Source: Actinotalea endophytica
GTDB taxonomy: Bacteria > Actinomycetota > Actinomycetes > Actinomycetales > Cellulomonadaceae
DNA length: 64,000 nucleotides
Assembly: GCF_025717005.1 (NCBI RefSeq)
Contig: NZ_JAOVZU010000005.1
Location: 1-64,000 of the forward strand
Direction: 5' to 3'
Part shown: positions 30,187-48,660 of the stretch, in pieces
Layout: every line of letters starts with the position of its first letter
Numbering within the stretch: position 1 is the stretch's first letter
The notes under the pieces: model-generated
The model's database searches: none
What the model was told of the DNA's origin: nothing
What the model saw: only the letters and a program-made list of their open reading frames with translations
Position numbers and translations under genes: made by a program

Positions 30187-30218
30187 CGACCCCGTTGTCA
30201 GGGGGGAAGCAGGGGGCC

Positions 30219-30920
30219 ATGGGGGAGAGTTCTGCCGTCGGCGTGCTCGATCGGCGTCGGGCGCGCGACGGGCGTGATGTGGCCGGGGCGTCCGCGCCCA
30301 GAGGCGATCGTCTGCCGCCACCACCGCGTGAGCGGCGCCCGTTGCTCGCCGCCCTCGCCGTCCTGCTCATCGTCGGCGGTGCCGCGGTCGCGGGCCTGCT
30401 GGCGCTGCGTCTCGACGAGCGCGTCCAGGTGGTCGTCGCCGCGCACGACATCGCCAACGGGTCGCAGCTCACCGCCGACGACTTCACCACGACGGCTGTC
30501 GCCTCGGAGGGCACGCTCCTCATCCCGGCAGGGCAGCTCGACCAGGTCGTCGGGCAGTACGCGCGGGTGCCGATCGCCGCGGGGCAGCTGCTGGACACCA
30601 CGATGCTGTCCGCGAGCGGCGCGCTGCAGCCCGGGCTGGTGGCCGTGGGGGCCGGCCTCGCGGCCGGGAGGATGCCGGCCTCGGGGCTGCAGCCGGGCGA
30701 CGTGGTCGAGCTCGTCCGGGTCGGTGACGGCACCGGAACGGTGCTCGTGCCGGACGCGTACGTCTCGTCGTCGTCCACCGGCAGCGAGGACCAGCTCGGC
30801 TCCGGTGGCACGGTCGTGACGTTCATCGTCGACGAGTCCGAGGGTGCGGAGGTGGCCGCGGTGGCGGCCGACGGGTCGCTGGCCGCCGTCCTCGTCTCGC
30901 GCGGCGACGCGAGGGGTTGA
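30219..30920 (+). CDS. cpaB: SAF-domain pilus assembly protein (CpaB/RcpC-like)
   Basis: A 233-residue protein with a basic, Pro-rich N-terminus, one membrane helix (PLLAALAVLLIVGGAAVAGLLAL) and an external SAF domain starting VQVVVAAHDIANGSQLTADDF. CpaB proteins of Tad systems have this architecture. In Gram-negatives they sit at the secretin; actinobacteria lack one, so here it may shape the pilus exit through the wall. ATG 30219 lies behind G-rich stretches; an alternative TTG lies 24 bp upstream. The next gene starts 1 nt after its stop. Confidence 0.8.
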   Translation: MGESSAVGVLDRRRARDGRDVAGASAPRGDRLPPPPRERRPLLAALAVLLIVGGAAVAGLLALRLDERVQVVVAAHDIANGSQLTADDFTTTAVASEGTLLIPAGQLDQVVGQYARVPIAAGQLLDTTMLSASGALQPGLVAVGAGLAAGRMPASGLQPGDVVELVRVGDGTGTVLVPDAYVSSSSTGSEDQLGSGGTVVTFIVDESEGAEVAAVAADGSLAAVLVSRGDARG

Positions 30921-30921
30921 C

Positions 30922-31701
30922 GTGCTGCTAGGGGTGGCGTCGGCGAAGGGGGCGCCAGGGGTCACGACAACCGCCCGTGTGCTCGCAGCGGTCTGGCCGA
31001 CGGAGGTGGTCCTGGCGGACTGCGACCCCGCCGGGGGAGACCTGGCCCTGCTGGCGCGGACACCGGCCGGCGAGGTGCTCGACCCCGACCGTGGGCTCCT
31101 CTCGCTGGCCGCGGACGCCCGGCGTGGCGTAGGGGCGCGTGACGTGGCGGCGCACCTGCAGCACGTCGACGGCGGTACGGCCGTGCTGTGCGGGATCGGA
31201 GCGCCCGAGCAGATGACAGGTCTGGGCCCGATGTGGCCGACCCTTGCGCAGCTGCTGCATCGGCTCCCGACGGCCAACGTCGTCGCCGACCTCGGGCGCC
31301 TGGTGCCGGACACGCCGGTGCTGCCGCTGGTGCAGGCGTGCGACGCGCTGGTCATGATCGTGCGCCCGAGCGTCGAGGCCTTCGGCCACCTGCGCGAGCG
31401 ACTGCGGTGGCTCGCGTCGCTCGAGCAGCTGCCCGGCGGCGCACCGGCCGTCGGCGTGCTCGTCGTGACCGAGAGCAGCGACCGACGCTCGGCGACCGAC
31501 CTCCAGCGGCTGCTCGCGAGCTCCGGGATCACGGTGCCGGTGCTCGGCACGATCGCGCTCGACCGGCACGCGGCCGACGTCGTGCAGGGGCGCCTCGACC
31601 GGGGCCTCTCCCGCTCGCTCCTGGTCCGTTCCGTCCGCTCCCTGGTGCCCTCGCTGCGGGCGCTGGCCGACACTCGTGGGTTCGCCCACGCACAGGTGTG
31701 A
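30922..31701 (+). CDS. tadZ: TadZ/CpaE-like ParA-superfamily protein with altered P-loop
   Basis: A 259-residue MinD/ParA-like protein. The N-terminal loop reads ASAKGAPGVTTTA: the deviant Walker A pattern KGGxGKT is kept at its first lysine but the catalytic second lysine is replaced (position of V). ADCDPAGGDLALL is the switch I-like segment. TadZ proteins position Tad machinery at cell poles and often bind nucleotide without strong hydrolysis. GTG 30922 has GAGGGG with 5-nt spacing. The tadA start lies at its stop codon. Confidence 0.8.
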   Translation: MLLGVASAKGAPGVTTTARVLAAVWPTEVVLADCDPAGGDLALLARTPAGEVLDPDRGLLSLAADARRGVGARDVAAHLQHVDGGTAVLCGIGAPEQMTGLGPMWPTLAQLLHRLPTANVVADLGRLVPDTPVLPLVQACDALVMIVRPSVEAFGHLRERLRWLASLEQLPGGAPAVGVLVVTESSDRRSATDLQRLLASSGITVPVLGTIALDRHAADVVQGRLDRGLSRSLLVRSVRSLVPSLRALADTRGFAHAQV

Positions 31702-31703
31702 CC

Positions 31704-33020
31704 ATGGCGATCGACCAGGCCCTCGTCCGCAGGCTCCGCGAGGAGGTCGCGGACGTCCTCGCGCGCCAGCGTCGGGACGACGCCGCCGCGGGGAACCCGC
31801 CGATGTCCGGGGAGGACGAGCGGCAGTTCGCCCGGGCGGTGATCAACCGCGTGCTGGACGGGCACGCGAGGGCGGAGGTGAGCGCCGGTCGCACGCCCCT
31901 GAGCCCGGTGGAGGAGGAAGAGGTCTCGTCGGGCATCCACGCCGCCCTGTTCGGCGTCGGACGGCTCCAGCCGCTGCTCGACGACCGCGACGTCGAGAAC
32001 ATCGACATCAACGGCTTCGACCACGTCTTCGTGCAGTACGCCGACGGGCGCGAGCTCAGGATGCCGCCGGTCGCGGACAGCGACGACGAGCTCGTGGAGC
32101 TCGTCCAGATCCTCGGTGCCTACTCGGGGCTGACGAGCCGGCCGTTCGACTCGGCGAACCCGCAGCTGGACCTGCGTCTGCCGGACGGCAGCCGGCTGTC
32201 GGCCGTGATGGACGTGTGCGCTCGGCCTGCGGTGTCCGTGCGACGTGCCCGCCTGGCGCGCGTGCACCTGGACGACCTGGTGCGGTTCGGCTCGATCACG
32301 CCGGACCTCGCCGCGTTCCTGTCGGCCGCGGTCGCGGCACGGAAGAACATCATGATCGCAGGCGCGACGAACGCCGGGAAGACGACCCTGCTCCGCGCTC
32401 TCGCGAACGAGATCCCCGCGCACGAGCGCCTGATCACGGTGGAACGGGCACTGGAGCTCGGGCTCGGGGAGTTCGCGGACCTGCACCCCAACGTCGTGGC
32501 GTTCGAGGAGCGGCTGCCGAACTCCGAGGGCAGCGGCGCGATCACGATGGCCGAGCTCGTGCGCCGCTCGCTGCGGATGAACCCCAGCCGGGTGATCGTC
32601 GGCGAGGTGCTCGGCGACGAGATCGTCACGATGCTGAACGCGATGAGCCAGGGCAACGACGGCTCCCTCTCGACCATCCACGCCAACAGCTCGATCGAGG
32701 TGTTCAACCGGATCTCGACCTACGCGATCCAGTCCGTCGAACGGCTGCCGGTCGACGCGACGATGATGCTGATCGCGGGAGCGATCGACTTCGTGGTCTT
32801 CGTGCAGAAGCACAACGACTACCTCGAGGGCGGCCGTCTGCGGCGGTTCGTCGCCTCGGTGCGTGAGGTCAACGGGGTGGACGGTCGTGTGCTGTCCAGC
32901 GAGGTGTTCGCGCCCGGACCGGACGGCGTCGCGATGCCGGCGGCCCCGATCGCGTGCATCGACGACCTCGTGGCGGTCGGGTACCGCCCCGGCTACGCGA
33001 TGGCTCGGGGGCACCTGTGA
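31704..33020 (+). CDS. tadA: Tad pilus assembly ATPase (TadA/CpaF)
   Basis: A 438-residue type II/IV secretion ATPase driving pilin assembly. The N-terminal helical region is followed by LLDDRDVENIDINGFDHVFV, typical of CpaF. Walker A is GATNAGKTT (from residue 220, K226); RMNPSRVIVGEVLGDE is the Walker B region, and the histidine box is STIHANSS. ATG 31704 is used; a GTG at 31698 overlapping the previous stop is also possible. The stop overlaps tadB by 4 nt. Confidence 0.92.
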   Translation: MAIDQALVRRLREEVADVLARQRRDDAAAGNPPMSGEDERQFARAVINRVLDGHARAEVSAGRTPLSPVEEEEVSSGIHAALFGVGRLQPLLDDRDVENIDINGFDHVFVQYADGRELRMPPVADSDDELVELVQILGAYSGLTSRPFDSANPQLDLRLPDGSRLSAVMDVCARPAVSVRRARLARVHLDDLVRFGSITPDLAAFLSAAVAARKNIMIAGATNAGKTTLLRALANEIPAHERLITVERALELGLGEFADLHPNVVAFEERLPNSEGSGAITMAELVRRSLRMNPSRVIVGEVLGDEIVTMLNAMSQGNDGSLSTIHANSSIEVFNRISTYAIQSVERLPVDATMMLIAGAIDFVVFVQKHNDYLEGGRLRRFVASVREVNGVDGRVLSSEVFAPGPDGVAMPAAPIACIDDLVAVGYRPGYAMARGHL

Positions 33021-33898
33021 GTGCCACGACGATCGGCATCGTCCTCGCCGGGCTGGTGATCGGTCTCGGCGGGTTCCTGCTCGTCCTGGCGCTGGTCGGC
33101 CGACCGGCCGGGGCGCGCGAGCAGCGCCCACGCCGCACCGCACCGAGGGTGGGCCGGCGCGCGATCCTGGCCCTGGCGGCCGGCCTCGTCGTGCTCGTGG
33201 CGACCCGGTGGCCGGTGGCCGCGGTCGGGACGGTGGCCCTTGCCCTCGCCGGTCCGGCGTTGTTCGGCGGCGCGCGGCTCGAGCGGGAGGCCATCGCACG
33301 CGTCGAGGGGCTCGCCGCGTGGACCGAGTCGCTCCGGGACACCATCGCCGGTGCCGTCGGCCTCGAGCAGGCCATCCCGGCGACCGTCTACGCCTCGTCC
33401 CCGGCGATCCGGCCGCAGCTGCGCCTGCTCGTCGACCGCCTGCGCGTGCGTGTCCCGCTCGCCGTGGCGTTGCAGCGGTTCGCGGACGATCTCGACGACC
33501 CGTCTGCCGACCTGGTCGTCGCAGCGCTGATCCTGAACGCGAAGCTCCGCGGGCCCGGGCTCCGGCAGGTCCTCGGCTCGCTGTCGGAGGCGGCGCGCGC
33601 GGAGCTCGACATGCGCCAGCGGGTCGCGGCCGGGAGGTCCTCGACACGCCGCTCCGCGCAGATCGTCATGGTGTTCTCCCTGGTCGTGATCCTCGGCCTG
33701 AGCGTCGCGAACCGGGCCTACGTCGCCCCGTACCAGAGCCTGACGGGGCAGCTCGTGCTCGTGGTCGTGGCGGGGCTGTTCGCGGCGGGGTTCTGGTGGA
33801 TGAAGCGCCTGTCGGGGATCGAGCTGCCGGGCCGGTTCCTGGTGGCGACCACCGACCGGGGCGGCGTCCCGGTGCGGACCCCGGAGGTCTCGCGATGA
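33017..33898 (+). CDS. tadB: Tad membrane platform protein, TadB-like
   Basis: A 293-residue protein with two N-terminal helices, a cytoplasmic GspF/T2SSF domain (GLEQAIPATVYAS, RFADDLDDPSADLVVAAL, then LRQVLGSLSEAARAELDMRQ) and two C-terminal helices. It would form, with TadC, the inner platform on which TadA acts. The GTG overlaps tadA by 4 nt. The C-terminal tail after the last helix is longer than usual. Confidence 0.85.
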   Translation: MSATTIGIVLAGLVIGLGGFLLVLALVGRPAGAREQRPRRTAPRVGRRAILALAAGLVVLVATRWPVAAVGTVALALAGPALFGGARLEREAIARVEGLAAWTESLRDTIAGAVGLEQAIPATVYASSPAIRPQLRLLVDRLRVRVPLAVALQRFADDLDDPSADLVVAALILNAKLRGPGLRQVLGSLSEAARAELDMRQRVAAGRSSTRRSAQIVMVFSLVVILGLSVANRAYVAPYQSLTGQLVLVVVAGLFAAGFWWMKRLSGIELPGRFLVATTDRGGVPVRTPEVSR

Positions 33899-34791
33899 CG
33901 CCGATCCTGGTCGCCGGGGCGGTCGCCGGGCTGGGCGCCCTCCTGCTCGCGGTGGTGCTTGCGCCGCCGCGGGTCCAGCCCGGCTCGGCCCTGGCCCGGC
34001 TCGACCTCGAGCGCGCTGCGCGGCGCCGGGCGGACGTGGGAGCGGCGCCGAGGTCCGGCGACCGGCTCGGCCGACGCGTCGCGAGCCTGCTGGCGGGCCT
34101 GGGGCTCCCGCTCACGACCCTGCGTGGCGACCTGGCGATCACCGGCAGCTCCTACGAGCGACACCTGGCGACGAGCACGCTGGCCGCGCTCGTCGGGTTC
34201 CTGAGCCCGATGGTGCTGGTCGTGCCGTGGACGCTGGTCGGCGCGGGTGTCGCGCCCGCGGTGCCGGTGGTCCTCGCTGTGGGCCTCGGCGTGCTGGCCG
34301 GCCTCGCACCGAGCCTCGTGGTCCGCCATCGCGCCGCGCAGCGCCGCCGGGACTTCCGGCACGTCGTCGGGTCGTTCCTGGACCTGGTGGCGATGAGCCT
34401 CGCCGGCGGCCGCGGGGTGCCGGAGGCGCTGCAGAGCGCGTCCGAGCTGAGCAACGGGTGGGCGATGGTGCGGATCCGCGACACCCTGATCGCCGCGCGG
34501 CTCCGAGGCGTCACGCCCTGGACGGCGCTCGGACAGCTCGGGGAGGACCTGCGCGTCGACGAGCTGCGCGATCTCTCGGCAGCGCTCGCCCTGGTCGCGG
34601 AGGACGGGGCGAAGGTCCGCGACTCGCTGAGGGCGCGGGCCGCCTCGATGCGCCGCCGCGAGCTCGCCGAGGCCGAGGGGCGGGCGGGGGAGAAGTCGCA
34701 GTCGATGCTCGTCGCGCAGCTGCTGCTCGCGGTCGGCTTCCTGGTCTTCCTGGTGTACCCGGCGATGGTGACGGTGCTCCATGGTGCCTAG
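33895..34791 (+). CDS. tadC: Tad membrane platform protein, TadC-like
   Basis: A 298-residue GspF-domain membrane protein: TM1 at residues 3-23, a pair of helices around 95-135, a cytoplasmic domain containing VGSFLDLVAMSLAGGRGVPEAL and EAEGRAGEKSQSMLVAQLL, and a last helix (LLAVGFLVFLVYPAMV). The ATG overlaps the tadB stop by 4 nt. A strong hairpin lies between its stop and the pilin gene. Confidence 0.85.
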   Translation: MTPILVAGAVAGLGALLLAVVLAPPRVQPGSALARLDLERAARRRADVGAAPRSGDRLGRRVASLLAGLGLPLTTLRGDLAITGSSYERHLATSTLAALVGFLSPMVLVVPWTLVGAGVAPAVPVVLAVGLGVLAGLAPSLVVRHRAAQRRRDFRHVVGSFLDLVAMSLAGGRGVPEALQSASELSNGWAMVRIRDTLIAARLRGVTPWTALGQLGEDLRVDELRDLSAALALVAEDGAKVRDSLRARAASMRRRELAEAEGRAGEKSQSMLVAQLLLAVGFLVFLVYPAMVTVLHGA

Positions 34792-34797
34792 GTTCTG

Positions 34798-34814
34798 GCC
34801 CGCCGACGGCGGGC
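34798..34814 (+). terminator. Hairpin directly upstream of the pilin gene
   Basis: GCCCGCC (34798-34804) and GGCGGGC (34808-34814) form a 7-bp GC stem with a 3-nt loop, 23 bp before the pilin ATG. It could be a partial terminator or an RNA-stabilising end that sets pilin levels apart from the platform genes. Confidence 0.45.
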
Positions 34815-34837
34815 CCGGTGTGAGTGGAAGGAACAGC

Positions 34838-35089
34838 ATGGAACTCGGACTCGACAACCCGCTCGGGTACCTGTGGCTCCGAGCCAGGGTCCGGCTGGAC
34901 CGGGCCCGGAGCACCGGCGACCTCGGCGCCTCCGCGATCGAGTGGGTGATCATCACCGGTGTGCTCGTCGCCCTCGCGGCGGCGGTCGGCGTGATCATCT
35001 ACAACCTCGTCCGGGACCGGGCGAGCGAGATCGCGATCCCGGACGCCCCTGGCGGGGGCGGTAGCGGTGGGGGCGGCGGCAACCCGTGA
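34838..35089 (+). CDS. Flp-type prepilin
   Basis: An 83-residue protein with the class III signal: a charged leader ending in GDLG, cleavage before A, then ASAIEWVIITGVLVALAAAV, a hydrophobic helix with the conserved glutamate at mature position 5. The mature pilin would have about 50 residues with a Gly/Ser-rich tail. The ATG has GGAAGGA with 5-nt spacing, the best ribosome binding site of the operon, as expected for the major subunit. No prepilin peptidase gene is in the window. Confidence 0.85.
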   Translation: MELGLDNPLGYLWLRARVRLDRARSTGDLGASAIEWVIITGVLVALAAAVGVIIYNLVRDRASEIAIPDAPGGGGSGGGGGNP

Positions 35090-35508
35090 CCTGCCGGCAG
35101 GGACGGCTGCACGGGCGGCTGCGCGGCGACACCGGGGCGAGCACGGTCGAGCTGGTGATGTACACGCCGCTGCTGATGCTGACGATCTTCGTGATCGTCC
35201 AGTTCGCCCTGTCCTGGTACGGGAACGAGGTGGCCGGCGCGGCGGCACGCGAGGCGGCGCGGGTGGCCAGGGTGGGTGGCGGCACGCCGTCCGCGATCGC
35301 GGACGCCGAGGCGGCCGGTGCAGCACTCGCCACCAACGTCGGGGGCAACGGCCTCACCGACGTCGAGGTCGAGGTGGTGGCGCTACCGCTCTCCCAGGAG
35401 GTTCGCGCGACGGTGACCGGTCGCTCGGTCGAGATCGTCGCCGGCCTCGCGCCGAGGGTGAGCGCTTCGGTCCAAGGGCCGGTGGAGGTCTTCCGCCCCG
35501 ATGAGTGA
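35086..35508 (+). CDS. TadE-like minor pilin
   Basis: A 140-residue protein with a prepilin-type leader (LRGDTG), then ASTVELVMYTPLLML with glutamate at +5 and a single helix, and an external domain with EVAGAAAREAARVA, the TadE pattern. It is probably a pseudopilin at the pilus base or tip. The GTG overlaps the pilin stop by 4 nt, and the next gene overlaps its end by 8 nt. Confidence 0.85.
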   Translation: MTCRQGRLHGRLRGDTGASTVELVMYTPLLMLTIFVIVQFALSWYGNEVAGAAAREAARVARVGGGTPSAIADAEAAGAALATNVGGNGLTDVEVEVVALPLSQEVRATVTGRSVEIVAGLAPRVSASVQGPVEVFRPDE

Positions 35509-35908
35509 ACGCACGTCTCGTGACACCGGGTCGATGGCCGTCGAGGTCGTCGTCCTGGTCCCGGTGATGCTCGGACTCCTGCTGCTCGTCGTGGCGATGG
35601 GTCGGTTCGTGTCGGCACAGGGTGTCGCGACCTCGTTGGCCCGGGACGCGGTCCGGGCCGCGAGCCTCGAGCGGGATGCGGACAGCGCACTCGACGTCGC
35701 CCGTCGGACCGCCGCAGCCGCTCCCGGCGGGTTGACCTGTTCGCCCGCGGAGCTGGACGGCGCGTTCGCCGCCGGTGGGGTGGTCACCGTGGTGCTCGAC
35801 TGCCGCGTGTCCTGGGACCAGCTCGGGTTCATCGGTCTGCCCGGCTCGGTGCGGGTGACCGGGACCAGCTCGGCCCCGATCGACGTGTACCGAAGGACCG
35901 CGCCGTGA
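35501..35908 (+). CDS. TadE-like minor pilin, second copy
   Basis: A 135-residue protein with leader SRDTG, then SMAVEVVVLVPVMLGLL (glutamate at +5) and one membrane helix. Two cysteines in the external part (LTCSPAE and VLDCRV) could form a disulfide. The ATG overlaps the upstream gene by 8 nt and the next gene overlaps its stop by 4 nt. Confidence 0.82.
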   Translation: MSERTSRDTGSMAVEVVVLVPVMLGLLLLVVAMGRFVSAQGVATSLARDAVRAASLERDADSALDVARRTAAAAPGGLTCSPAELDGAFAAGGVVTVVLDCRVSWDQLGFIGLPGSVRVTGTSSAPIDVYRRTAP

Positions 35909-36351
35909 GGCGCCCGGCGGCCCGCGACGAGGGCACAGCATCGGCGTTCGTGATCGGCCTGGTGGTGGCCCTGTTCGTGGTCGCGGGTCTCGTGGTCGAC
36001 GGGGGCCGCGCGCTCAACGCACGGGTCGCCGCGGCGGACGTCGCCGAGCAGGCCGCCAGGGCGGGCGCGATGCAGGTCGACGTCGACGAGCTGCGGTCGA
36101 ACGGGTCCCTGGCGCTCGACCCGACGGCCGCTCGCTCGGCGGCCGCGGCGTACCTCGTGAGCCAGGGGTACGACGCGACGACGGCCTCGGTGGCCGCCGA
36201 CACGACGGCGGTGCACGTGACCGTGCGCGACGAGGTGCCCACCTCGTTGCTCCAGCTGATCTTCATCCCGACGATGGCCGTGTCCGGTGGCGCGAGCGCC
36301 CGTGCGGCGCTCGGCATCGTCGACGAGATCTCGCTCCCGGGGGGACCATGA
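35905..36351 (+). CDS. TadG-like pilus-associated membrane protein
   Basis: A 148-residue protein with a helix ASAFVIGLVVALFVVAGLVVDGG followed by RALNARVAAADVAEQAARAGA, the pattern of TadG/Flp-associated proteins (Rv3654c-like). The +5 glutamate of prepilins is absent (phenylalanine is there), so it may be a membrane anchor and not a processed pilin. It is much shorter than Gram-negative TadG, with no von Willebrand domain. The GTG overlaps the previous stop by 4 nt. Confidence 0.78.
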   Translation: MRRPAARDEGTASAFVIGLVVALFVVAGLVVDGGRALNARVAAADVAEQAARAGAMQVDVDELRSNGSLALDPTAARSAAAAYLVSQGYDATTASVAADTTAVHVTVRDEVPTSLLQLIFIPTMAVSGGASARAALGIVDEISLPGGP

Positions 36352-39131: not shown

Positions 39132-39147
39132 CCGACCGGACAGAACT

Positions 39148-39170
39148 CCCGGGGCCCTGGTGGCCCCGGG
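39148..39170 (+). terminator. GC-rich hairpin between the Tad operon and the WXG100 gene
   Basis: CCCGGGGCC (39148-39156) pairs with GGCCCCGGG (39162-39170), loop of 5. It fills the 95-bp gap after the LysM protein gene and may attenuate read-through or protect a processed WXG100 message. Confidence 0.5.
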
Positions 39171-39226
39171 GCCGATCGCCGGGCTGACCAGCGCGGCGGG
39201 ACCGACACGAAGCAGGGAGACAGAAC

Positions 39227-39499
39227 GTGGCCGTTGGTGCAGAACTCAGCACGCTTCAGGACCTTCACAAGACCTTCGTCGCGAAGGCCGACGAGGCGCT
39301 CCAGATCCAGACCCAGGTGCAGAGCGCGCTTGACGGCGCCCAGTGGACGGGCAAGTACTCCGAGGACTTCCGCTCGGCCTGGGTCGAGTACAAGAAGAAC
39401 CTCAACAACCTCGCCGACGCCCTGACCGGTGCCGCCAAGGACGTGCAGACCAACCACAACAACATCGCTGCCGCGACCGGCGAGCCGGACCGCATCTGA
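39227..39499 (+). CDS. WXG100-family type VII secretion protein (EsxA-like)
   Basis: A 90-residue, wholly helical protein with the turn WTG at residues 40-42 in the middle, the hallmark of WXG100 proteins that dimerise as four-helix bundles and leave through type VII systems. KYSEDF after the turn gives the usual aromatic at +8. No clear YxxxD/E export signal is seen at the C-terminus, as in many Firmicute-type (T7SSb) members. The GTG has GGGAGA with 6-nt spacing. Hairpins flank the gene on both sides, and the EccC-type ATPase follows. Confidence 0.9.
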   Translation: MAVGAELSTLQDLHKTFVAKADEALQIQTQVQSALDGAQWTGKYSEDFRSAWVEYKKNLNNLADALTGAAKDVQTNHNNIAAATGEPDRI

Positions 39500-39505
39500 G
39501 GCGTG

Positions 39506-39544
39506 CGGCGCGCGGCCCGCCCAGCTGGAGCGGGCCTCGCGCCG
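39506..39544 (+). terminator. Long hairpin between the WXG100 and EccC genes
   Basis: CGGCGCG (39506-39512) plus GGCCCGC (39514-39520) pair with GCGGGCC (39530-39536) plus CGCGCCG (39538-39544): 14 pairs with one mismatch, loop of 9. It lies between two genes that must be made in very different amounts. Confidence 0.6.
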
Positions 39545-39564
39545 TGCCGGGAGAAGGAGAACAC

Positions 39565-42500: not shown

Positions 42501-44118
42501 GACGGCGCCGCCCCCGCCGTGGCTGCCCGCGTTGCCGGACGTGGTGGTCGAGCTGCCCGCGGTCGACGGGCCGCTCCTCCTGCCGTACGGCCTGGTCGAC
42601 CTGCCTGCGCAGCAGGCCCGCGACCTCGCGGTGCTCGACCTGGAGACCTGCGGGTCGCTCGCCGTGGTGGGCAGCGCGCGGTCCGGCCGGTCGACCGTCC
42701 TGCGGGCGCTGGCAGCGGCCGTCGCGGAGCGGACCTCGCCGCGGGACGTGCACCTGTACGGGGTCGACTGCGGCAACAACGCCCTGCTGCCGCTGGTCGG
42801 CCTGCCGCACACCGGTGCCGTGGTGCCGCGGGACCAGCCCGACCGGCTCGCGCGACTGAGCCGACGCCTGCGGGCGGAGATCTCCCGCCGCCAGCAGCTC
42901 CTCGCGGAGCTGGCCTGCGCCGACGTCACCGAGCAGCGGGCGCGGGCGACCGAGGGCGACCGGCTCCCGTACCTGCTCGTGCTGCTCGACCGGTGGGAGG
43001 GGTTCCTCCAGGCCTTCGAGGAGTACGACGGCGGCGCTCTGGTCGAGACCTGGACCCAGATCCTCCAGGAAGGGCCGGGGGCGGGCGTGAAGGTCGTGGT
43101 CAGTGGCGACCGCTCGCTGCTCGCCGGCCGCGTGTCGACCCTCACCGAGGACCGCGTGATGCTGCGGATGAACGATCGCTCGGAGTACGGCGCCGTCGGC
43201 CTCCTGCCGCGCGAGGTGCCCGAGCGCGTGCCGGACGGCCGTGCCTTCCGTGGGCCGGACGCCGAAGAGCTCCAGGTCAGGGTGCTCGACGCCGACGTGC
43301 AGGGTGCGGCGCAGGTCGCCGCGCTGCAGTCGCTCGGGCGTCTGGCGGAGCAGCGATGGGCGGCGGAGCGGGTCGATCTGCCGCCGTCCGCGGACCAGGT
43401 GCCGTTCCGGGTCGACGTGCTGCCGGCCAGGATCACGCTGGCCGAGGCCGGACGGCTCGGCGGGCCGCCGCTCGGCGGGACCGCGGTCCCGGCGGGTGTG
43501 GGTGGTGACGCGCTGCGGCTGATGGGCCTGGACGCCGAGGAGCACGGTCCAGGCGTCCTGGTGGTCGGTCCGCGACGCTCGGGCCGGAGCACCACCCTGG
43601 CCACGATGGCGCGCTCGGCCCTCGACCGCGGCTGGGCGGTCGGTCTGGTGACTCCGCGCCGCAGCCCGCTTCAGGACCTGGAGCGCGAGCGCGGGGTCGT
43701 GGGCGTGCTCGACCTCGACTCGCCGAAGGACGCGGTCGGCGCGGTCCTGTCGAGGCTCGCTCCCGACTCGCGGCCGACCCTGCTCCTGGTCGACGACCTC
43801 GAGCTCGTGGGTACGGACGGGCCGCTGGCCGACGCCGTCGTGAACCACCTCGGCGCCGTGCGAGACCGGCCGGGCCTCGTGGTGGCGGCGGGGTCGGTCG
43901 ACGACCTCTCCGGCGCGTACCGCGGCCCGGTGCCCGCGCTCAAGCGGTCGCGGTGCGGGCTCTTCCTGTCCCCGAGCACCCCGAACGAGGGTGACGTGCT
44001 CGGTGTGCGCCTACCGCGGTCGGCGCTCGGTGCCACGGTGCCCGGTCGAGGCGTCCTGGTCGCCGCAGGTGCGATGCACCTGGTGCAGGTTCCGCTCCCC
44101 ACGGGAGCGTCGTCATGA
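39565..44118 (+). CDS. FtsK/SpoIIIE-type secretion ATPase (EccC/EssC-like) with FHA-like N-terminus
   Basis: A 1517-residue type VII secretion motor. The N-terminal ~290 residues contain two beta-rich, FHA/ubiquitin-like parts, as in EssC. Two close membrane helices follow (about 300-342, MLLAPVALGAGTFLIF and LLLMLLSPVMAVANWAG), then three ATPase domains. Domain 1 has an intact Walker A, GTTGSGKSE (K717), LIDYKGGAAF and LIVIDEFAALV. In domains 2 and 3 the lysine is arginine (R1042 in GSARSGRST, R1341 in GPRRSGRST). The GTG at 39565 has AAGGAGA with 4-nt spacing; the open frame upstream is not family-like. The next gene overlaps its stop by 4 nt. Confidence 0.92.
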   Translation: MRLVLSVATGDQNLDVLVECAPGALVRDLASGLATVAPHVTPRGRGHLGVVQVGPGAGPAPALWFQGRALDPDQPVADSPVRHGAVLGIGADAGGEWAEPTGVVEVRISSGRGAGRVHRLAAGRHVVGSGPSASILLEDGPAHAVVLEIGIDAGVTVHPDDAASGSVAPPSRRKPLDGPIVLPGDPEPGPAGRTYAARLARATSARGALREVDPESDRPVVHLDRAPLDGPTPWSPGAALVVGDTMLELSAVTAPDASLSPGRGGATLDYNRPPRILPPRRTTDFRLPAEPQRPDAVRFPVVMLLAPVALGAGTFLIFHNPSFLLLMLLSPVMAVANWAGNRRSRRGQHVDAVRSWAERSARVTAAAYAALGEESSARRHDLPDPATVLLAATGPRVRLWERRRTDPDWLLGRIGTADLPSEVRLIDPARLDHERDLRWTAPDVPVAVPLADVGVTGIAGPAEERTRLAGWVVAQVAAEHSPADVSVVLLGDGAGQGWHWLRWLPHVRRETGALASVGTDDETTQRRVAELLDLVERRRAAEREGRTAVAPAPVVVVLDGARRIRLLQGLVTLLRDGPGVGVLFVCLDEDERQLPEECRAVVTLGSTASVTVAGRDPVDGIRPDLPDPAWFERLGRALAPLRDISTEDLGQTLPTASRLLEVLRMDPPSGAAVVARWAGGGRTTRAVIGETGEGPFEVDLRGDGPHGLVAGTTGSGKSELLQTLIASLAVANRPDEMTFVLIDYKGGAAFKDCDRLPHTVGMVTDLDAHLTSRALESLRAELRRREHQLARLGAKDIEDYVAMRGAADAPMPRLLIVIDEFAALVSELPDFVTGLVDVARRGRSLGVHLLLATQRPAGVVSAEIRSNTNLRIALRVTDKQDSQDVIEVPDAAEIPQGLPGRAYARLGHQNLVPFQASRVGGRPPGADPGDAVRVLPLTWRSLGRPAVVVGAVDEKDVDVPTDLASLVRAVEAACLDVGVTAPPPPWLPALPDVVVELPAVDGPLLLPYGLVDLPAQQARDLAVLDLETCGSLAVVGSARSGRSTVLRALAAAVAERTSPRDVHLYGVDCGNNALLPLVGLPHTGAVVPRDQPDRLARLSRRLRAEISRRQQLLAELACADVTEQRARATEGDRLPYLLVLLDRWEGFLQAFEEYDGGALVETWTQILQEGPGAGVKVVVSGDRSLLAGRVSTLTEDRVMLRMNDRSEYGAVGLLPREVPERVPDGRAFRGPDAEELQVRVLDADVQGAAQVAALQSLGRLAEQRWAAERVDLPPSADQVPFRVDVLPARITLAEAGRLGGPPLGGTAVPAGVGGDALRLMGLDAEEHGPGVLVVGPRRSGRSTTLATMARSALDRGWAVGLVTPRRSPLQDLERERGVVGVLDLDSPKDAVGAVLSRLAPDSRPTLLLVDDLELVGTDGPLADAVVNHLGAVRDRPGLVVAAGSVDDLSGAYRGPVPALKRSRCGLFLSPSTPNEGDVLGVRLPRSALGATVPGRGVLVAAGAMHLVQVPLPTGASS

Positions 44119-44696
44119 GGCCGTGTGCAGGAACGATCGGAAGGGGGAGCGCGGTGCGGAGAGCTGCGCGCGCAGGGATGGTCGCGATGGTTGTCGGACT
44201 GGTGGTCGGGCTGGGGGTCACCGGGTGCTCGGGCACCGCGCCGGAGCCGACGAGCACGGCCACGAGTCCCGTGGAGACACCTTCCGAGACGGCCACCGTC
44301 GACCCGACCGAGGACGCCGAGGCGGAGGTCCTGGCCGCGTACCGGGCCTACTGGGCCGCGACCGTCGCGCTCTTCGCGGGCAACCACGACGCGGCGGTCT
44401 ACGACGGCGTCGCGCAGGGGGCGATCGTCGAGGAGAACCTCTCCCAGGCCCGCTACTACGAGGAGTACGACCTGGTCCTCACCGGTGCGCCGACGTTCTC
44501 GAACGAGACCGTGACGATCGACGGCGACCGGGCCACGGTCCTCGCCTGCGTGGACAACTCCGCGTGGGTTCCGGCCGAGGGTGAGGTCACGGGCGAGATC
44601 GAGCCGGTGCAGGCGGGTGGCCTCGTCCTCGAGCGGATCGACGGCACCTGGCTGGCGACCGACTCCACGCCGGCGCCGGAGGGCTTCACATGCTGA
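44115..44696 (+). CDS. Lipoprotein of unknown function, T7SS-linked
   Basis: A 193-residue lipoprotein: basic N-terminus, helix MVAMVVGLVVGLG, and lipobox VTGC with the modified cysteine at residue 38. After a Thr/Pro/Glu-rich linker comes a domain starting EVLAAYRAYWAATVALF, and VTIDGDRATVLACVDNS, which resembles NTF2-like small lipoproteins of Gram-positives. The ATG overlaps the EccC stop by 4 nt (ATGA). A GTG at 44154 would give a shorter signal peptide. Confidence 0.8.
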   Translation: MRPCAGTIGRGSAVRRAARAGMVAMVVGLVVGLGVTGCSGTAPEPTSTATSPVETPSETATVDPTEDAEAEVLAAYRAYWAATVALFAGNHDAAVYDGVAQGAIVEENLSQARYYEEYDLVLTGAPTFSNETVTIDGDRATVLACVDNSAWVPAEGEVTGEIEPVQAGGLVLERIDGTWLATDSTPAPEGFTC

Positions 44697-45568
44697 GCCG
44701 TCGTCGTCGCCTCGTCGGTGCGGCCGTGGCCGTGGGCCTCTGGGTGGCGGCGTGGCCGGCCGGCCTCGCGTGGGCGGAGACTCCGCCGGGGTGCCGGCTC
44801 GTCCCGGTCGCCGGGCACGGCGAGGGCGGCATCCGGTACGAGGTCGTCTGCCCCGGCGACGGCGACGAGACGACCCCGGGGGACGGGGGAGGAGACGCGC
44901 CGACGTGCGACCTCTCGGGGATCGCCGAGTACTGCATCGGAGCGAGTGCGTGCTGGGCGAACGTGCCGTCGGCGCTGCCCGAGGACTCCTGGCCGTGGGA
45001 GTCCCAGCCGTCGCCGGACGCGATCTACACGTACCAGTCGTGCACTCCGGACCCGACCGGGACGCTGACAGGTTGGTCCTGGTACACGCCTCCGGAGATC
45101 ACGGTCGGCCAGGCGGCGCGGCAGGCCTACGGTGCCTTGCGCACCCCGGCGTTCTCGATCGGGATGAGCCCCGTGCGGCGTGCCGTCGTGGGGTTGGACA
45201 CGTGGTTCTGGGCGGCGGGGCCCGACGGCGGCGAGATCACCGGGTCGGCGGCGCTGGGCGTGGTCGCGATCGGCACGCCGGCGAGTCTGGAGGTCGACCC
45301 CGGGGACGGTTCGGGCCCTCGTACCTGTGCGTGGTCGGTCTCGGACGGCCCGGCCTGCGCGGTCGCGTACGAGAGGTCGTCGGCGGGTCAACCCGTCGGT
45401 GCCGACGGGCTGCCGGCCTACACGGCCCGGATGCGGTTGGTCTACGACGTCCGGTTCACGCAGGGCGGCACCACCCTGGACGTGGCCGGCGTGCCCGACA
45501 CCCTGACCTCGGGGTGGCAGACCCTGGAGGTCCCGGTGGCGGAGATCGAAGCGGTCGTCGCGCCGTGA
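44690..45568 (+). CDS. Secreted protein of unknown function
   Basis: A 292-residue protein with a Sec signal peptide: RRRR, a hydrophobic core (AAVAVGLWVAAWPAGL) and an AWA cleavage site before E30. The mature part has several cysteines (CRLV, VVCPG, CDLSG, EYCIG, SACW, SCTPD), likely disulfides, and a Gly/Asp-rich segment. No membrane anchor is present. I do not recognise the family. It overlaps the lipoprotein gene by 7 nt and ends the first transcription unit. Confidence 0.8.
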   Translation: MLSRRRRLVGAAVAVGLWVAAWPAGLAWAETPPGCRLVPVAGHGEGGIRYEVVCPGDGDETTPGDGGGDAPTCDLSGIAEYCIGASACWANVPSALPEDSWPWESQPSPDAIYTYQSCTPDPTGTLTGWSWYTPPEITVGQAARQAYGALRTPAFSIGMSPVRRAVVGLDTWFWAAGPDGGEITGSAALGVVAIGTPASLEVDPGDGSGPRTCAWSVSDGPACAVAYERSSAGQPVGADGLPAYTARMRLVYDVRFTQGGTTLDVAGVPDTLTSGWQTLEVPVAEIEAVVAP

Positions 45569-45614
45569 CGGTGCGGGGCGGACGGTTGCCCGGATCGACG
45601 GACCGGACGCCCGA

Positions 45615-45620
45615 TAGGGT
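45615..45620 (+). promoter_or_regulatory. -10 box for the second secretion-linked unit
   Basis: TAGGGT, 43 bp before the start at 45664, in the longest gap (95 bp) after the EccC gene. Confidence 0.45.
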
Positions 45621-45663
45621 TTCGACGCGCGCCGCACGGCGCTGATGCGGGGGGAGAACGGGA

Positions 45664-45966
45664 TTGGCGGAGGACGAGCCGGAGCAGGTGGAGAACCGCT
45701 ACCGGACGGCGATGTCACGGGCGCTGCCGAGTGTGGAACGTCGCGCCGACGACGTCGCCGCGGTGTTCGACGACGTGCAGGCGGCGATGCGACAGGGTGC
45801 GTGGACGAGCACCAGCCACGCCGCCGACGACTTCGCGAGCGGCTGCGCGACGCACGACACGGCGGCGGCGAACGCCGGCGGTGACTGCGTCGCGGATCTT
45901 CGCGCGCGCCGGGACGGCGAGCCCGTGACGGTGCCCGCGACCGACTCACGCGCGTACTGGGGCTGA
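45664..45966 (+). CDS. Small helical protein, possibly WXG100-like
   Basis: A 100-residue, mostly helical protein. Near the middle W47-T-S-T-SHAADDF resembles the central turn of WXG100 proteins (W-x-G followed by AA-x-x-F), but the glycine is replaced by serine. It has two cysteines and no signal peptide. The start is a TTG at 45664 behind GGGGGGAG; an ATG at 45712 is an alternative. It directly precedes the large 705-residue protein (1-nt gap), which recalls small helical partners encoded before T7SS effectors. This is inference. Confidence 0.6.
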   Translation: MAEDEPEQVENRYRTAMSRALPSVERRADDVAAVFDDVQAAMRQGAWTSTSHAADDFASGCATHDTAAANAGGDCVADLRARRDGEPVTVPATDSRAYWG

Positions 45967-45967
45967 C

Positions 45968-48085
45968 ATGGCGACGTCGAGCATCGATGTGGTGGGGATG
46001 CGGCAGGTCGTCCGGGGCATGGAGTGCGCGCTGGACGACCTGCACACGGCCAAGGACTGGTTCTCGTCCACCCTGCACGGGTACCGCGTGTGGACCGGTT
46101 CGCCGTCTCGGCTGTGGGGGCCGATCACCTGGACGCAGGACCAGATCCCGGGTCTGCGTCGGCGCCTGGCGATGGCCGAGGCGTTGGAGAGCTCACGGCC
46201 CGAGTGGCCGGTGGGGACGGCGGTGATCGACGAGGACCTGCTCAGCCAGGTGGCTCCCGAGACAGCCGTGACGAACGGTCGCGAGGCCGCCGAACGCCTG
46301 CGGGACTGCGACGGGGTGCCGGACGAGGACCTGATCGCGCTGATCGAGGCGAACCAGGACGACCCGTACTTCGCCTCGGGCTTCGCGGGCGAGCTGAGCC
46401 CCGACGAGCTGGCCGAGCTGACCGTGGCGCTGTCGTACCACCGCACCCAGTACGACAACGTGCACACCGCCGAGGAGATCGACGCCGCCAACGCCTGGTA
46501 CGGGCGGCTGGTCACGGCGATGTCGGCCACGCTGGGCACGGCGACCCGGGCCACCGGCGACCTCGCCCTGCCTGCCGGGTATGCCGACGGCTGGGTCGAG
46601 GCGATCACCGAGGAGGTGCCCTACCAGATCGGCGCCGACCCCGACGCCTCCGGGTTCGCCGACCGCGCGAACGCGCTGGGCGTGCTGTTGATGTCCGGAA
46701 CGTTCTCCGAGGACTTCACCACCACCGTGGCCACGGGCGTGTACGACTACGAACGGGAGTTCGGCGCGGAGAACGGCGCGGTCTGGGGCCCGCGGTCGAG
46801 CGACGCCGCAAGCGCCTTCTTCGTCGCGGACGCGACCGGGGCCAGGTTCCGTGACCCGATGGTCGGCGTGCTGGCGGCGCTGGGGCACAACCCCGCGGCG
46901 GCGCAGGAGTTCTTCGCGGGCGGGGACCAGGTCACCGTGACGATCGCAGGGAGCGACCAGGTGGTCTCGGACCGGCTGGCCTATCTGATCACCGAGCGCA
47001 CCTGGGCGGGTCTGCCGGACAACGGCGACGCGCTGGGTGCGGCACTGGAGGCCGCGACGACCACGTACCGGAACAACCAGGAGTCCGGGCGCGTCTCGGC
47101 CGACCTCGCCGGCCAGACTCTCGCCCTGATCGGCGAGACGACCGGGGACGGCGCGGGCGGCTGGGGGCCGTGGAAGGACGCCGGATGGCAGATGTGGGAC
47201 GGCATGCGCCCCCACATCGCCGACGTGCTGGCCTCCTACGGCACCGACGTCTACCGCGTCGCTCTCGAGGGCGACGACCTCTCCGGCGGCCTGGCCGGAC
47301 CGGGGAGCGGGTACCTCTTCCCGGACGGCAGCGCGTACGGGGTCCGGATGGATCAGGGGCTGCTCGCGAAGGTCCTCGGCACGCTCGGTGAGGACGAGGC
47401 GACGATCACCCCGGTGATGGCCGGCCTGATGCAGGCCGGGACGGTCGCGGTGGACTACGGGTTCAGCACGGCCGCCGAGACCCAGGAGTCCGCCGCGGGC
47501 GCGATGCTGGCGGGCTTGTCCGTGGACGACGCGACGTCGTCGGTGGTCAACACGTCCGAGGCCTTGGCGTGGGTGATGCAGAACGCCTACAGCGGTGACC
47601 AGAGCGACGCGGACCTGAAGGCCGAACGTGCGGCCGCCGTCGCGGAGGCGCTCAGTCTCGCCTCGTCGTTGCCGTTCATCCCGGAGGTGAAGAACGAGTG
47701 GGTGCAGCTCGCGCTCGGCGAGGCGGAGAGCCGAGCGTTCTCGGCCGTGGAGGACGGCCTGGCCGGCGACGACGACCCGCAGGCCGCGTATGCCGCGTGG
47801 GACGACTACGCGCGGAGCAACCTGCTGCACCAGACACTCGACTCGGCCGTGCGGGCCGGGTACTTCACGGAGGACTCGCTGGCCTCGGCCCAGGAGCTCT
47901 ACCACGTGACCGTCGAGCCGCCGCCGGCCTCGGGCGTCATCACCGACGCCCAGGGCAACCCGGTCGGGCTGGACTACTCCGACCCGGCGGTCCGCAGCTG
48001 GTTGAACGGCTCCGGGTTCGTGGCGGCGATGAAGGACTCGGTGGTCGGCCCGATCGCGGCCGCGTGGGCGGGGCCGGGCTCATGA
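45968..48085 (+). CDS. Large helical protein, candidate type VII substrate (DUF6571-like)
   Basis: A 705-residue protein without signal peptide or membrane helices. The first ~100 residues are helical with W-rich turns (YRVWTGSPSRLWGP), and the rest is alpha-helical and Ala/Asp-rich, including ANALGVLLMSGTFSEDFTT and GHNPAAAQEFFAG. This looks like the DUF6571-type proteins that occur near WXG100 genes in actinobacteria; I am not certain of the family number. The C-terminus carries no toxin motif I can name. The ATG follows the small gene by 1 nt, and the lipoprotein start overlaps its stop. Confidence 0.7.
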   Translation: MATSSIDVVGMRQVVRGMECALDDLHTAKDWFSSTLHGYRVWTGSPSRLWGPITWTQDQIPGLRRRLAMAEALESSRPEWPVGTAVIDEDLLSQVAPETAVTNGREAAERLRDCDGVPDEDLIALIEANQDDPYFASGFAGELSPDELAELTVALSYHRTQYDNVHTAEEIDAANAWYGRLVTAMSATLGTATRATGDLALPAGYADGWVEAITEEVPYQIGADPDASGFADRANALGVLLMSGTFSEDFTTTVATGVYDYEREFGAENGAVWGPRSSDAASAFFVADATGARFRDPMVGVLAALGHNPAAAQEFFAGGDQVTVTIAGSDQVVSDRLAYLITERTWAGLPDNGDALGAALEAATTTYRNNQESGRVSADLAGQTLALIGETTGDGAGGWGPWKDAGWQMWDGMRPHIADVLASYGTDVYRVALEGDDLSGGLAGPGSGYLFPDGSAYGVRMDQGLLAKVLGTLGEDEATITPVMAGLMQAGTVAVDYGFSTAAETQESAAGAMLAGLSVDDATSSVVNTSEALAWVMQNAYSGDQSDADLKAERAAAVAEALSLASSLPFIPEVKNEWVQLALGEAESRAFSAVEDGLAGDDDPQAAYAAWDDYARSNLLHQTLDSAVRAGYFTEDSLASAQELYHVTVEPPPASGVITDAQGNPVGLDYSDPAVRSWLNGSGFVAAMKDSVVGPIAAAWAGPGS

Positions 48086-48660
48086 GGCGCGCGATCCGGG
48101 CCGGGACGGCGGCGCTGGTCCTTGTCTCCCTGGCGGCTTGCACCGCACACGGGAGCCCCGAGCCGGGCCCGACGACCTCGGGTGACCTCGCCCTCGCCAC
48201 TTCGGCGCCCGCCGACGCCGAGGTGCAGTGCGGAGTCGATGTCGCGTCGGTCGAGCTCGCGACCGGGCACGCCGTCGACAGCATCGACGGCACGCTGGCC
48301 GAGGCCGGTGACGTCGGCGGAGGCTGGTGCGTGCTGCGCGGCGAGACGCTGGTCTCGCCCGTCGCGGCGGTGCGCGTCGACACCGTCCAGTCCGCGGAGG
48401 GCACCGACCTCCGGGCTCGGATCGACGGCGACGGGCACAACCCCCCGGACCGGACCTTCCCGGACCTCGACGGTGGCGTGTGGGGTGACGTCGTCCCGGC
48501 GACCGACACCGCGTCGCTCGGGGCGTCGTCCGGGGTCATCTGGGGCTCCTATGCGATCGAGGTCCAGCTCGGTGCAGGTGCCCGTGGGCGCGACATCACG
48601 CTCGACCTCGAGGCGTTGACCCGCCAGGTCGCGGACTCGCTGAACCTCGGGAGCCCGTGA
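48082..48660 (+). CDS. Lipoprotein of unknown function
   Basis: A 192-residue lipoprotein with lipobox LAAC (C20) after a short helix. The mature domain has two cysteines (VQCGVDV and GWCVLRG) and a beta-rich look. The ATG overlaps the upstream stop by 4 nt, so it is co-translated with the 705-residue protein and could be its immunity or surface partner. No family is recognised. Confidence 0.75.

What the first reader, a model, noticed from the sequence alone, without database searches (positions are those of the whole stretch)
30219..48660. Composite Tad pilus and type VII secretion locus
A complete-looking Tad core (SAF protein, TadZ, TadA, TadB, TadC, pilin, three minor pilin-like genes) runs in one direction with 4-nt overlaps into a LysM-regulator protein, a WXG100 protein and an EccC/EssC motor, then lipoproteins and candidate substrates. 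Each family is known, but their tight joining suggests one surface system in which pilus and WXG100 export are co-regulated or share the wall passage. The usual T7SS partners EccB, EccD, EccE, mycosin (or EsaA, EssA, EssB) and the prepilin peptidase are absent from the window.
Basis: partly seen in the sequence, partly recalled or inferred. Interest (0 to 1): 0.85.

Follow-up and report, generated by a model that had tools for sequence, protein, structure and literature searches.

The report
Pilus locus joined to type VII secretion
In many soil bacteria of the class Actinomycetes, the genes for one kind of surface fibre (a Tad pilus) lie close to the genes for a protein-export machine (type VII secretion, here in a stripped-down form), which suggests that the two work together.

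Summary
The locus is real: between hisS and aspS lie a Tad (type IVc) pilus set, a LysM-BTAD protein, a WXG100 gene, an EssC/EccC-type ATPase, a lipoprotein/secreted pair and a WXG-like/DUF6571/lipoprotein cassette.

The linkage is no local accident. Of 64 other genomes of the class with a close TadA (394 searched), 58 could be judged; 56 have an EccC-type ATPase within about 26 kb, in four gene orders. Thirteen more distant Tad loci of the window's family show none in 20-kb stretches.

EccB is absent from all 36 genomes searched in three families (own included), so this is not the classical mycobacterial-type system; in a fourth family EccB often occurs. ATPases of the same family also occur without Tad.

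In my searches Tad-adjacent T7SS is in print only for Bacillota (T7SSg/h), its meaning left open. Functional coupling is likely; a shared wall passage is possible and untested.

The parts
28758..30122 (+). hisS, left border of the island (not part of the system)
   Evidence: recognised from the translation; tblastn hit beside the Tad genes in 5 f1 relatives
30195..30920 (+). SAF-domain protein (CpaB/RcpC-like)
   Evidence: Pfam SAF 1.4e-11; the start may be further downstream, 30342 in my gene caller
30922..31701 (+). TadZ/CpaE-like ATPase
   Evidence: no significant family hit of its own; homologues at the same place in relatives
31704..33020 (+). TadA/CpaF motor ATPase
   Evidence: T2SSE 4.4e-30, TIGR03819 228 bits
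33017..33898 (+). TadB
   Evidence: T2SSF 1.4e-6
33895..34791 (+). TadC
   Evidence: T2SSF 1.1e-9
34838..35089 (+). Flp-type major pilin with G|ASAIE cleavage site
   Evidence: sequence; homologues in relatives; no significant Pfam hit
35086..35508 (+). TadE minor pilin 1
   Evidence: PF07811 1.3e-10
35501..35908 (+). TadE minor pilin 2
   Evidence: PF07811 1.1e-8
35905..36351 (+). TadG-like protein
   Evidence: PF13400 8.1e-8
36348..39131 (+). LysM-BTAD membrane protein of the Tad locus
   Evidence: family hits in homologues: BTAD 6 of 9, LysM 2 of 9; 83 genes of the family by iterated HMM in the loci examined
39227..39499 (+). WXG100 protein (TsxA/EsxA type)
   Evidence: PF06013 31.4 bits, over cut-off; orthologues at the same place in f1 and f27
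39503..39547 (+). hairpin (17 pairs by my measure) between wxg100 and eccC, terminator- or attenuator-like
   Evidence: 22 of 23 f1/f27 loci have a stem of 12 or more pairs within 130 nt after wxg, against 41 of 460 random windows and 68 of 338 windows after other genes
39565..44118 (+). EssC/EccC-type ATPase: possible N-terminal ubiquitin-like stretch (weak evidence), FHA-like stretch, two likely membrane helices, FtsK-type ATPase domains
   Evidence: PF01580 9.5e-59; TIGR03928 529 bits; alignment A1; tree
44115..44696 (+). lipoprotein 1, half of a pair seen with many Tad loci
   Evidence: 28 genes by iterated HMM in the loci examined, in f1, f20, f24, f26, f34
44690..45568 (+). secreted Cys/Trp-rich protein, other half of the pair
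   Evidence: 36 genes by iterated HMM in the loci examined
45664..45966 (+). second small WXG-like protein (AWTST motif), likely export partner of the DUF6571 protein
   Evidence: no significant Pfam hit; joins the WXG100 genes in iterated HMM; alignment A5
45968..48085 (+). DUF6571 protein, candidate T7SS substrate
   Evidence: PF20211 4.9e-18; recurs near EccC in f1, f27, f34 and once in f24
48082..48660 (+). lipoprotein 2, beside the DUF6571 gene
   Evidence: homologues beside DUF6571 in f1 relatives; similar-looking genes in f27 and f34 by eye only
48761..50536 (+). aspS, right border of the island (not part of the system)
   Evidence: tRNA-synt_2 3.6e-117

Best explanation
The locus encodes a two-part surface system: a Tad (type IVc) pilus coupled to a minimal type VII secretion core (one WXG100 protein plus an EssC/EccC-type ATPase with an FHA-like extension), which in the window's form has no EccB, and which exports a WXG-like/DUF6571 cargo.

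Shown here: gene content; wide co-conservation; several gene orders; absence of EccB from the genomes searched in three families; recurring cargo genes; a conserved hairpin after wxg.

Inferred: the ATPase works at or near the Tad assembly site and exports WXG100 and DUF6571 proteins when or where the pilus acts, for contact-dependent delivery or surface display. The pilus gives contact and placement, the ATPase gives export. The hairpin lets WXG100 be made in excess over the membrane motor.
For: 56 of 58 judgeable class-wide relatives have an EccC-type ATPase within about 26 kb of TadA: f27 19/19, f24 18/18, f34 13/13, f26 6/7, f20 0/1 (6 more of the 64 lie on cut contigs; in the first, equal stretches of -6 to +13.9 kb the count was 44 of 64 at 100 bits or more). 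My arithmetic: about 52 kb of a 3-10 Mb genome gives roughly 0.5-2% per EccC gene by chance.

Four orders: co-directional downstream (f1, f27), divergent upstream (f24, 9 of 13 f34, 4 f26), co-directional upstream (G472, G464, G447, G334), convergent downstream (G354, G394). Different neighbours: hisS/aspS in f1, folC and ndk in the f27 genomes looked at.

Within-family comparison: 13 f1 Tad stretches with TadA of 38-48% identity show no EccC, while 5 of 6 genomes with 82% or more do.

Interleaving: the lipoprotein/secreted pair seen with many Tad loci follows EccC with a 4-nt overlap in the window. In f34 genomes G433 and G410 an EccD gene lies upstream of the Tad genes and in line with them, two genes between.

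Linked EccCs fall mainly in two clades of 100% SH-aLRT. TadA and EccC distances correlate (r 0.91 over 46 loci, 0 of 2000 permutations).

Precedent: in Myxococcus a Tad-like Kil pilus recruits a needleless T3SS (PMC12075869, passages).
Against: No experiment. The distance correlation and the conservation are partly species history. ATPases of the same family persist without Tad nearby: 5 of 6 plasmid-collection loci looked at, and 12 of 21 named EccC loci of 600 bits or more have no TadA within 10 kb (one of these 12, S. aureus, seems to have it about 23-25 kb away). In the tree two Tad-linked f34 EccCs (L125, L128) sit among mostly unlinked ones. G070 keeps the Tad half at hisS-aspS without EccC, and has EccB and a canonical EccC elsewhere. 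G189 and G112 lack linkage. EccB is present in 3 of 4 f24 and 2 of 3 f26 genomes searched, beside the locus in some, so EccB-independence holds only for the f1/f27/f34 form. 17 of 19 f27 loci have a promoter-like site before wxg, so the halves can be expressed apart. The DUF6571 protein has no known activity and its export is unproved.
Confidence: 0.6

Rival explanations
1. Neighbourhood without joint mechanism: an adhesion module and an export module are kept side by side because both serve surface life and travel or are regulated as one island, but they do not act on each other.
For: EccC family also found without Tad; Tad without EccC in G070 and in 13 stretches with more distant f1 TadA; promoter-like site of wxg in f27; patchy presence in the family, 6 of 101 genomes with TadA of 82% or more.
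Against: Linkage kept in 56 of 58 judgeable relatives over four families despite inversions and different neighbours; in the window, genes typical of Tad loci lie on both sides of wxg-eccC; EccD in line with Tad genes in two f34 genomes. Drift should have separated them more often.
Confidence: 0.25
2. The T7SS core serves the pilus: it exports a wall-remodelling or tip factor that the Tad fibre needs to cross the thick wall.
For: This Tad subfamily rarely lacks an ATPase nearby (2 of 58), while the ATPase often lacks Tad within 10 kb (12 of 21), so dependence looks one-sided; LysM domain in the Tad locus.
Against: No hydrolase family hit in the DUF6571 proteins scanned; other Tad loci of the same genome have no EccC in their 17-kb stretches; G070 keeps the Tad half without it.
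Confidence: 0.1
3. EccC is a DNA or other translocase, and the WXG100 gene is unrelated to secretion.
For: FtsK-type ATPase domains; promoter-like site of wxg in f27.
Against: Best NCBIfam matches are EssC and EccC; WXG100 sits directly upstream in f1 and f27; WXG-like genes recur around EccC in the other families.
Confidence: 0.03

Closest known systems
T7SSg and T7SSh of Bacillota (Garrett, Higginson and Palmer 2024, PMC11217815; abstract, passages, sections 7 and 16 seen)
   Different: Other phylum; TsgC and TshC lack FHA domains; T7SSg has TsgL (beta-propeller) and a separate ubiquitin-like TsgB; T7SSh has TshB, TshG and TshM. In the window no such gene was found by Pfam among the 17 genes, and a LysM-BTAD protein and a DUF6571 protein are present.
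T7SSa (ESX) of Actinomycetota
   Same: EccC-family ATPase and WXG100; EccB, EccD and a canonical EccC do lie beside this kind of Tad locus in Nonomuraea gerenzanensis (L026) and G414.
   Different: No EccB in the window's genome nor in the other 35 f1/f27/f34 genomes searched; ATPase has an N-terminal extension with an FHA-like stretch.
T7SSd (Olsenella, Bifidobacterium; from PMC11217815)
   Same: Actinomycetota; FHA-type ATPase; few core parts; no separate ubiquitin-like protein.
   Different: Published core includes kinase TsdD, TsdH and the large TsdI; no kinase hit and no protein of TsdI's size was seen in the window locus; T7SSd is not reported next to Tad in the parts read.
Tad (type IVc) pilus
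   Same: SAF, TadZ-like, TadA, TadB, TadC, Flp-like pilin, two TadE, TadG-like.
   Different: LysM-BTAD protein and lipoprotein/secreted pair; no prepilin peptidase in the locus.
Kil pilus and needleless T3SS* of Myxococcus xanthus (PMC12075869; abstract and passages seen)
   Same: Tad-like pilus working with a secretion system that lacks its needle and secretin.
   Different: T3SS-like partner with its own gene cluster, diderm host; function shown by experiment there, not here.

Membership tests
Type VII secretion (general) | EccC/EssC FtsK-type membrane ATPase | tested here: met
   PF01580 9.5e-59; TIGR03928 529 bits, below its equivalog cut-off of 778
Type VII secretion (general) | WXG100 protein next to the ATPase | tested here: met
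   PF06013 over cut-off
Type VII secretion (general) | Secretion of WXG100/substrates shown | not testable with these tools
   needs culture experiments
T7SSa (ESX) | EccB in the genome | tested here: not met
   own genome none at E up to 10; at E up to 1e-5, 0 of 5 f1 (own included), 0 of 20 f27 and 0 of 11 f34 genomes, while 6 of the 44 genomes of that search match strongly
T7SSa (ESX) | EccD, EccE, mycosin | not tested
   none among the genes of the locus by Pfam; no genome-wide search made
T7SSb | EssB, EssA, EsaA, EsaB | tested here: inconclusive
   none among the genes of the locus; not searched genome-wide; an N-terminal ubiquitin-like domain on EccC is only weakly supported (YukD in 6 of 15 members, best E 0.0023; hhalign against EccD N-termini prob. 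15)
T7SSd | kinase TsdD and TsdI in the locus | tested here: not met
   no kinase family hit and no protein of TsdI's size and kind among the genes of 30195-48660
T7SSg/T7SSh | Tad genes adjacent | tested here: met
   window; 56 of 58 judgeable relatives within about 26 kb
T7SSg/T7SSh | ATPase without FHA; TsgL or TshG/TshM | tested here: inconclusive
   FHA-like stretch at residues 105-164 suggested by weak hits only (NCBIfam HrpD5 1.4e-4; Pfam Yop-YscD_cpl 0.012); no TsgL/TshG/TshM-like family hit in the locus
Tad pilus | TadA, TadB, TadC, pilin, TadE-type minor pilins | tested here: met
   the pilin by sequence motif and homologues only
Tad pilus | A24 prepilin peptidase | tested here: inconclusive
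   none in the locus; PilD about 10 kb beyond the window; whether it serves this pilin is unknown

The most novel reading that the evidence does not exclude
Tad pilus and channel-less T7SS form one machine: the Tad apparatus supplies the passage through membrane and wall, or the moving fibre, that the EccB-less ATPase lacks, and WXG100/DUF6571 substrates leave through or on the Tad fibre, a Gram-positive counterpart of the Kil pilus with its needleless T3SS.
Probability: 0.2. Interest if true: 0.95.

Novelty: new variant of a known kind. Interest (0 to 1): 0.74.

Why it matters
The only report of Tad-adjacent type VII secretion found in my searches (PMC11217815) concerns a few Bacillota genera, and its authors could not tell function from coincidence. 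The present survey gives many genomes with different gene orders in another phylum, some of them from named cultured strains (Nonomuraea, Microbispora, Actinomadura, Thermomonospora), so the question becomes directly testable. It also points to a T7SS form in Actinomycetes that does without EccB, and names its likely cargo (WXG-like protein plus DUF6571 protein).

Tried and rejected
(1) Idea that the EccC of the solved structure 4nh0 (from Thermomonospora curvata by my recall) belongs to this Tad-linked type: rejected. The T. catenispora Tad-linked EccC matches 4nh0 at only 299 bits. (3) Energy as a measure of the wxg hairpin: rejected because GC-rich random windows reach -33 kcal/mol; replaced by stem length with controls. 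Both the hairpin and the promoter test were framed after I had seen the sequences, so their controls do not make them blind tests. (4) Sigma-70 scan and T-tract terminator scan of the window: nothing beyond chance. (5) Apparent EccC losses in f27 genomes G283 and G202: rejected; EccC lies about 20-24 kb from TadA, with sugar-transport genes between wxg and it. (6) Literature: seven answered searches listed no paper that I could recognise as reporting Tad-T7SS linkage in Actinomycetota; PMC5720513 (passages) and PMC11004387 (passages) list both systems in one genome without linking them in the passages seen. DUF6571 occurs in no held paper. Most subscription papers are not held. (7) The label test on the tree is biased, because most linked rows were fetched through TadA; I use only the clades. 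The tree left out 19 of 75 sequences, chosen by me as near-copies or fragments.
Full report
WHAT IS THERE. The window is G000:C16:1-64000 of a 4.25-Mb, 20-contig genome. Between hisS (ends 30122) and aspS (starts 48761) seventeen genes run in one direction. Genes 1-9 are a Tad set: SAF, TadZ-like, TadA, TadB, TadC, pilin, TadE, TadE, TadG-like. Gene 10 is a large LysM-BTAD membrane protein. Genes 11-12 are a WXG100 protein and a 1517-aa EssC/EccC-type ATPase. Genes 13-14 are a lipoprotein and a secreted protein (signal types by eye). Genes 15-17 are a second WXG-like protein, a DUF6571 protein and a lipoprotein. Gaps: overlaps of 4-8 nt at most joints of the Tad half, 95 nt before wxg, 65 nt between wxg and eccC, then overlaps again after eccC.

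SAME GENOME. EccB: none at E up to 10. WXG100: two genes, the window's and an orphan near groEL on C17. FtsK-type matches over the cut-off: FtsK itself, the window's EccC, and an orphan FtsK-type gene on C2 (1104 aa as called) without T7SS neighbours in its 17-kb stretch. Two other Tad-type loci (C17, C12) have no EccC in their 17-kb stretches, and a type IVa pilus cluster with PilD begins just past the window.

FAMILY-LEVEL SURVEY. TadA was searched in 101 genomes of the family, E up to 1e-60: 40 have a match; six (own included) have a TadA of 82% identity or more. I fetched 18 stretches of up to 20 kb: the five others of that group and 13 of the 34 genomes with more distant TadA (38-48%). 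Four of the five carry Tad-LysM-EccC after hisS; tblastn found the WXG100 gene in three of these four (not in L057). The fifth, G070, has hisS-Tad-LysM-aspS without EccC. None of the 13 distant stretches shows an EccC at E up to 1e-3, though all 13 show a LysM-BTAD relative and several the lipoprotein/secreted pair. These stretches reach about 16 kb downstream of TadA, less than the 26 kb read in some genomes below.

CLASS-LEVEL SURVEY. TadA was searched in 394 genomes of the class, E up to 1e-140: 65 match, own included. Identity is 72% or more in 61 of the 64 others and 57-60% in three. I fetched -6 to +13.9 kb around all 64 (some cut by contig ends). An EccC hit of 100 bits or more lies inside the stretch in 44 of 64, and four f34 stretches have a weaker hit (66-85 bits). 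Wider stretches, and a FtsK_SpoIIIE search of seven genomes, for part of the rest raise this: G283, G202, G464, G201, G447, G233, G173 and G368 also have it within about 26 kb; two of the four weak f34 cases (G433, G410) were read in full as EccC with an EccD neighbour, and the other two (G370, G418) rest on the weak hit. Six of the 64 lie on cut contigs (G175, G325, G470, G430, G169, G107). So 56 of 58 judgeable genomes are linked; G189 and G112 show none within about 26 kb on either side. Of the 56, 52 have an ATPase of the window's own family (by tblastn; many seen only in part) and 4 a more canonical-like one.

ORDERS AND SITES. The tool gives families as numbers. f27 (Micromonospora-like by my reading) has the window's order. 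f24 (which groups with Nonomuraea, Microbispora, Actinomadura and Thermomonospora in the EccC tree) has EccC divergent from the SAF gene in 18 of 18. f34 is mixed. In f26 (Streptomyces-like by my reading) EccC lies up to about 26 kb away, with WXG and DUF6571 genes between in G447. The f1 island lies after hisS, and before aspS where the stretch reaches it; in the f27 genomes looked at, folC lies upstream (G283, G202) and ndk downstream (G326) (folC and ndk recognised by eye). In G283 and G202 sugar-transport genes lie between wxg and eccC.

CONVERSE. EccC of the same family without Tad: six loci of the plasmid collection were read with 15-kb flanks (55 records matched). Five (Streptomyces, Embleya, Curtobacterium) have no Tad gene hit. 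The sixth, Nonomuraea gerenzanensis (L026), has Tad divergent from EccC, followed by EccB, WXG-like genes, EccD and a canonical-looking EccC. So this Tad subfamily rarely goes without an ATPase, but the ATPase often goes without Tad nearby.

PARTNERS. EccB searched in 44 chosen genomes, E up to 1e-5: 0 of 5 f1 with the linked locus, 0 of 20 f27, 0 of 11 f34 (in 33 of these 36 the linked ATPase of the window's family was seen; the others are G175, cut, and G433 and G410, canonical-like), 3 of 4 f24, 2 of 3 f26, and G070. Nine of the 36 are held as one contig. Thus the window's form stands without EccB, while f24 often has EccB, in G414, L026, L197, L198 and L205 close to the locus. In f34 G433 and G410 an EccD gene (PF19053 3.6e-26 in G433; 40% to the L026 EccD in both) lies upstream of and in line with the Tad genes, two genes between.

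CARGO AND ACCESSORIES. DUF6571 genes recur near EccC in f1, f27 and f34 and, more distantly similar, in f24 G476 and f26 G447, often next to a WXG-like gene. The lipoprotein/secreted pair accompanies Tad loci in f1, f24, f26 and f34; in the window it follows eccC with a 4-nt overlap, so genes typical of Tad loci lie on both sides of wxg-eccC. In three f1 relatives (L058-L060) the WXG-like and DUF6571 genes follow EccC directly.

CONTROL ELEMENTS. A stem of 12 or more pairs follows wxg within 130 nt in 22 of 23 f1/f27 loci, against 41 of 460 random windows and 68 of 338 windows after other genes. A TTGNNN-N15-18-TANNNT site lies at -86 to -90 of wxg in 17 of 19 f27 loci and 0 of 4 f1 loci, against 8 of 920 random windows and 2 of 335 windows upstream of other genes. 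Both tests were framed after seeing the sequences, and the loci are related. No transcript was measured.

MECHANISM. I take the two halves to be functionally coupled: pilus for contact and placement, ATPase for export of WXG100 and DUF6571 proteins, WXG100 made in excess through the hairpin. Coupling is inferred from the genomic evidence; export, placement and function are not shown. The closest experimental parallel I know is the Kil pilus that recruits a needleless T3SS in Myxococcus (PMC12075869, abstract and passages).

PRIOR ART. PMC11217815 (abstract, passages, sections 7 and 16) reports Tad genes always next to T7SSg and T7SSh in Bacillota and says that it is not clear whether this is functional or coincidental; its only new Actinomycetota subtype, T7SSd, is not described as Tad-linked in the parts seen. 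My seven answered literature searches listed no report for Actinomycetota. Hence 'new variant of a known kind'.

LIMITS. Gene calls outside the window come from a simple caller of mine; the reading of f24, f26, f27 as named groups is mine; sampling is by TadA, so unlinked EccCs are under-sampled; relatedness inflates counts; the structure job did not return.

Noticed in passing
L015:6842-10156 (own genome C2): Orphan FtsK/SpoIIIE protein (1104 aa as called) with EccC-like ATPase domain, a WhiB-like gene (by eye) nearby, no WXG100 or Tad hit in the stretch.
   Followed up: partly
L020:7402-7689 (own genome C17): Orphan WXG100 gene (57.9 bits) near groEL, without a recognisable secretion gene in the 15-kb stretch.
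   Followed up: no
L019:2019-13999 (own genome C16, just past the window): Type IVa pilus cluster (PilB-, PilT-, PilC-like, pilins, PilD, PilM-like; mostly by eye), so the strain carries type IVa and at least three Tad-type loci.
   Followed up: partly
L156:1561-4405 and L161: EccD and two further genes lie in line upstream of the Tad SAF gene, with a canonical-like EccC divergent; no EccB found in these two genomes.
   Followed up: partly
L117, L119 (14.3-19.9 kb): A LacI-type regulator and sugar ABC genes lie between wxg100 and eccC; the wxg hairpin is kept and eccC is displaced by more than 10 kb.
   Followed up: partly
G468:C39:93343-94647: TadA frame reported with two internal TGA codons while most other Tad genes of the locus give hits.
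   Followed up: no
G070 (L061, L288): The one f1 genome with this Tad but no EccC at the locus has EccB and a canonical EccC elsewhere, as if one T7SS type replaced the other.
   Followed up: partly
L023:21229-34644 (Streptomyces plasmid): An annotated gene of about 19 kb (roughly 6,300 aa) next to WXG100 and an EccC of this family.
   Followed up: no
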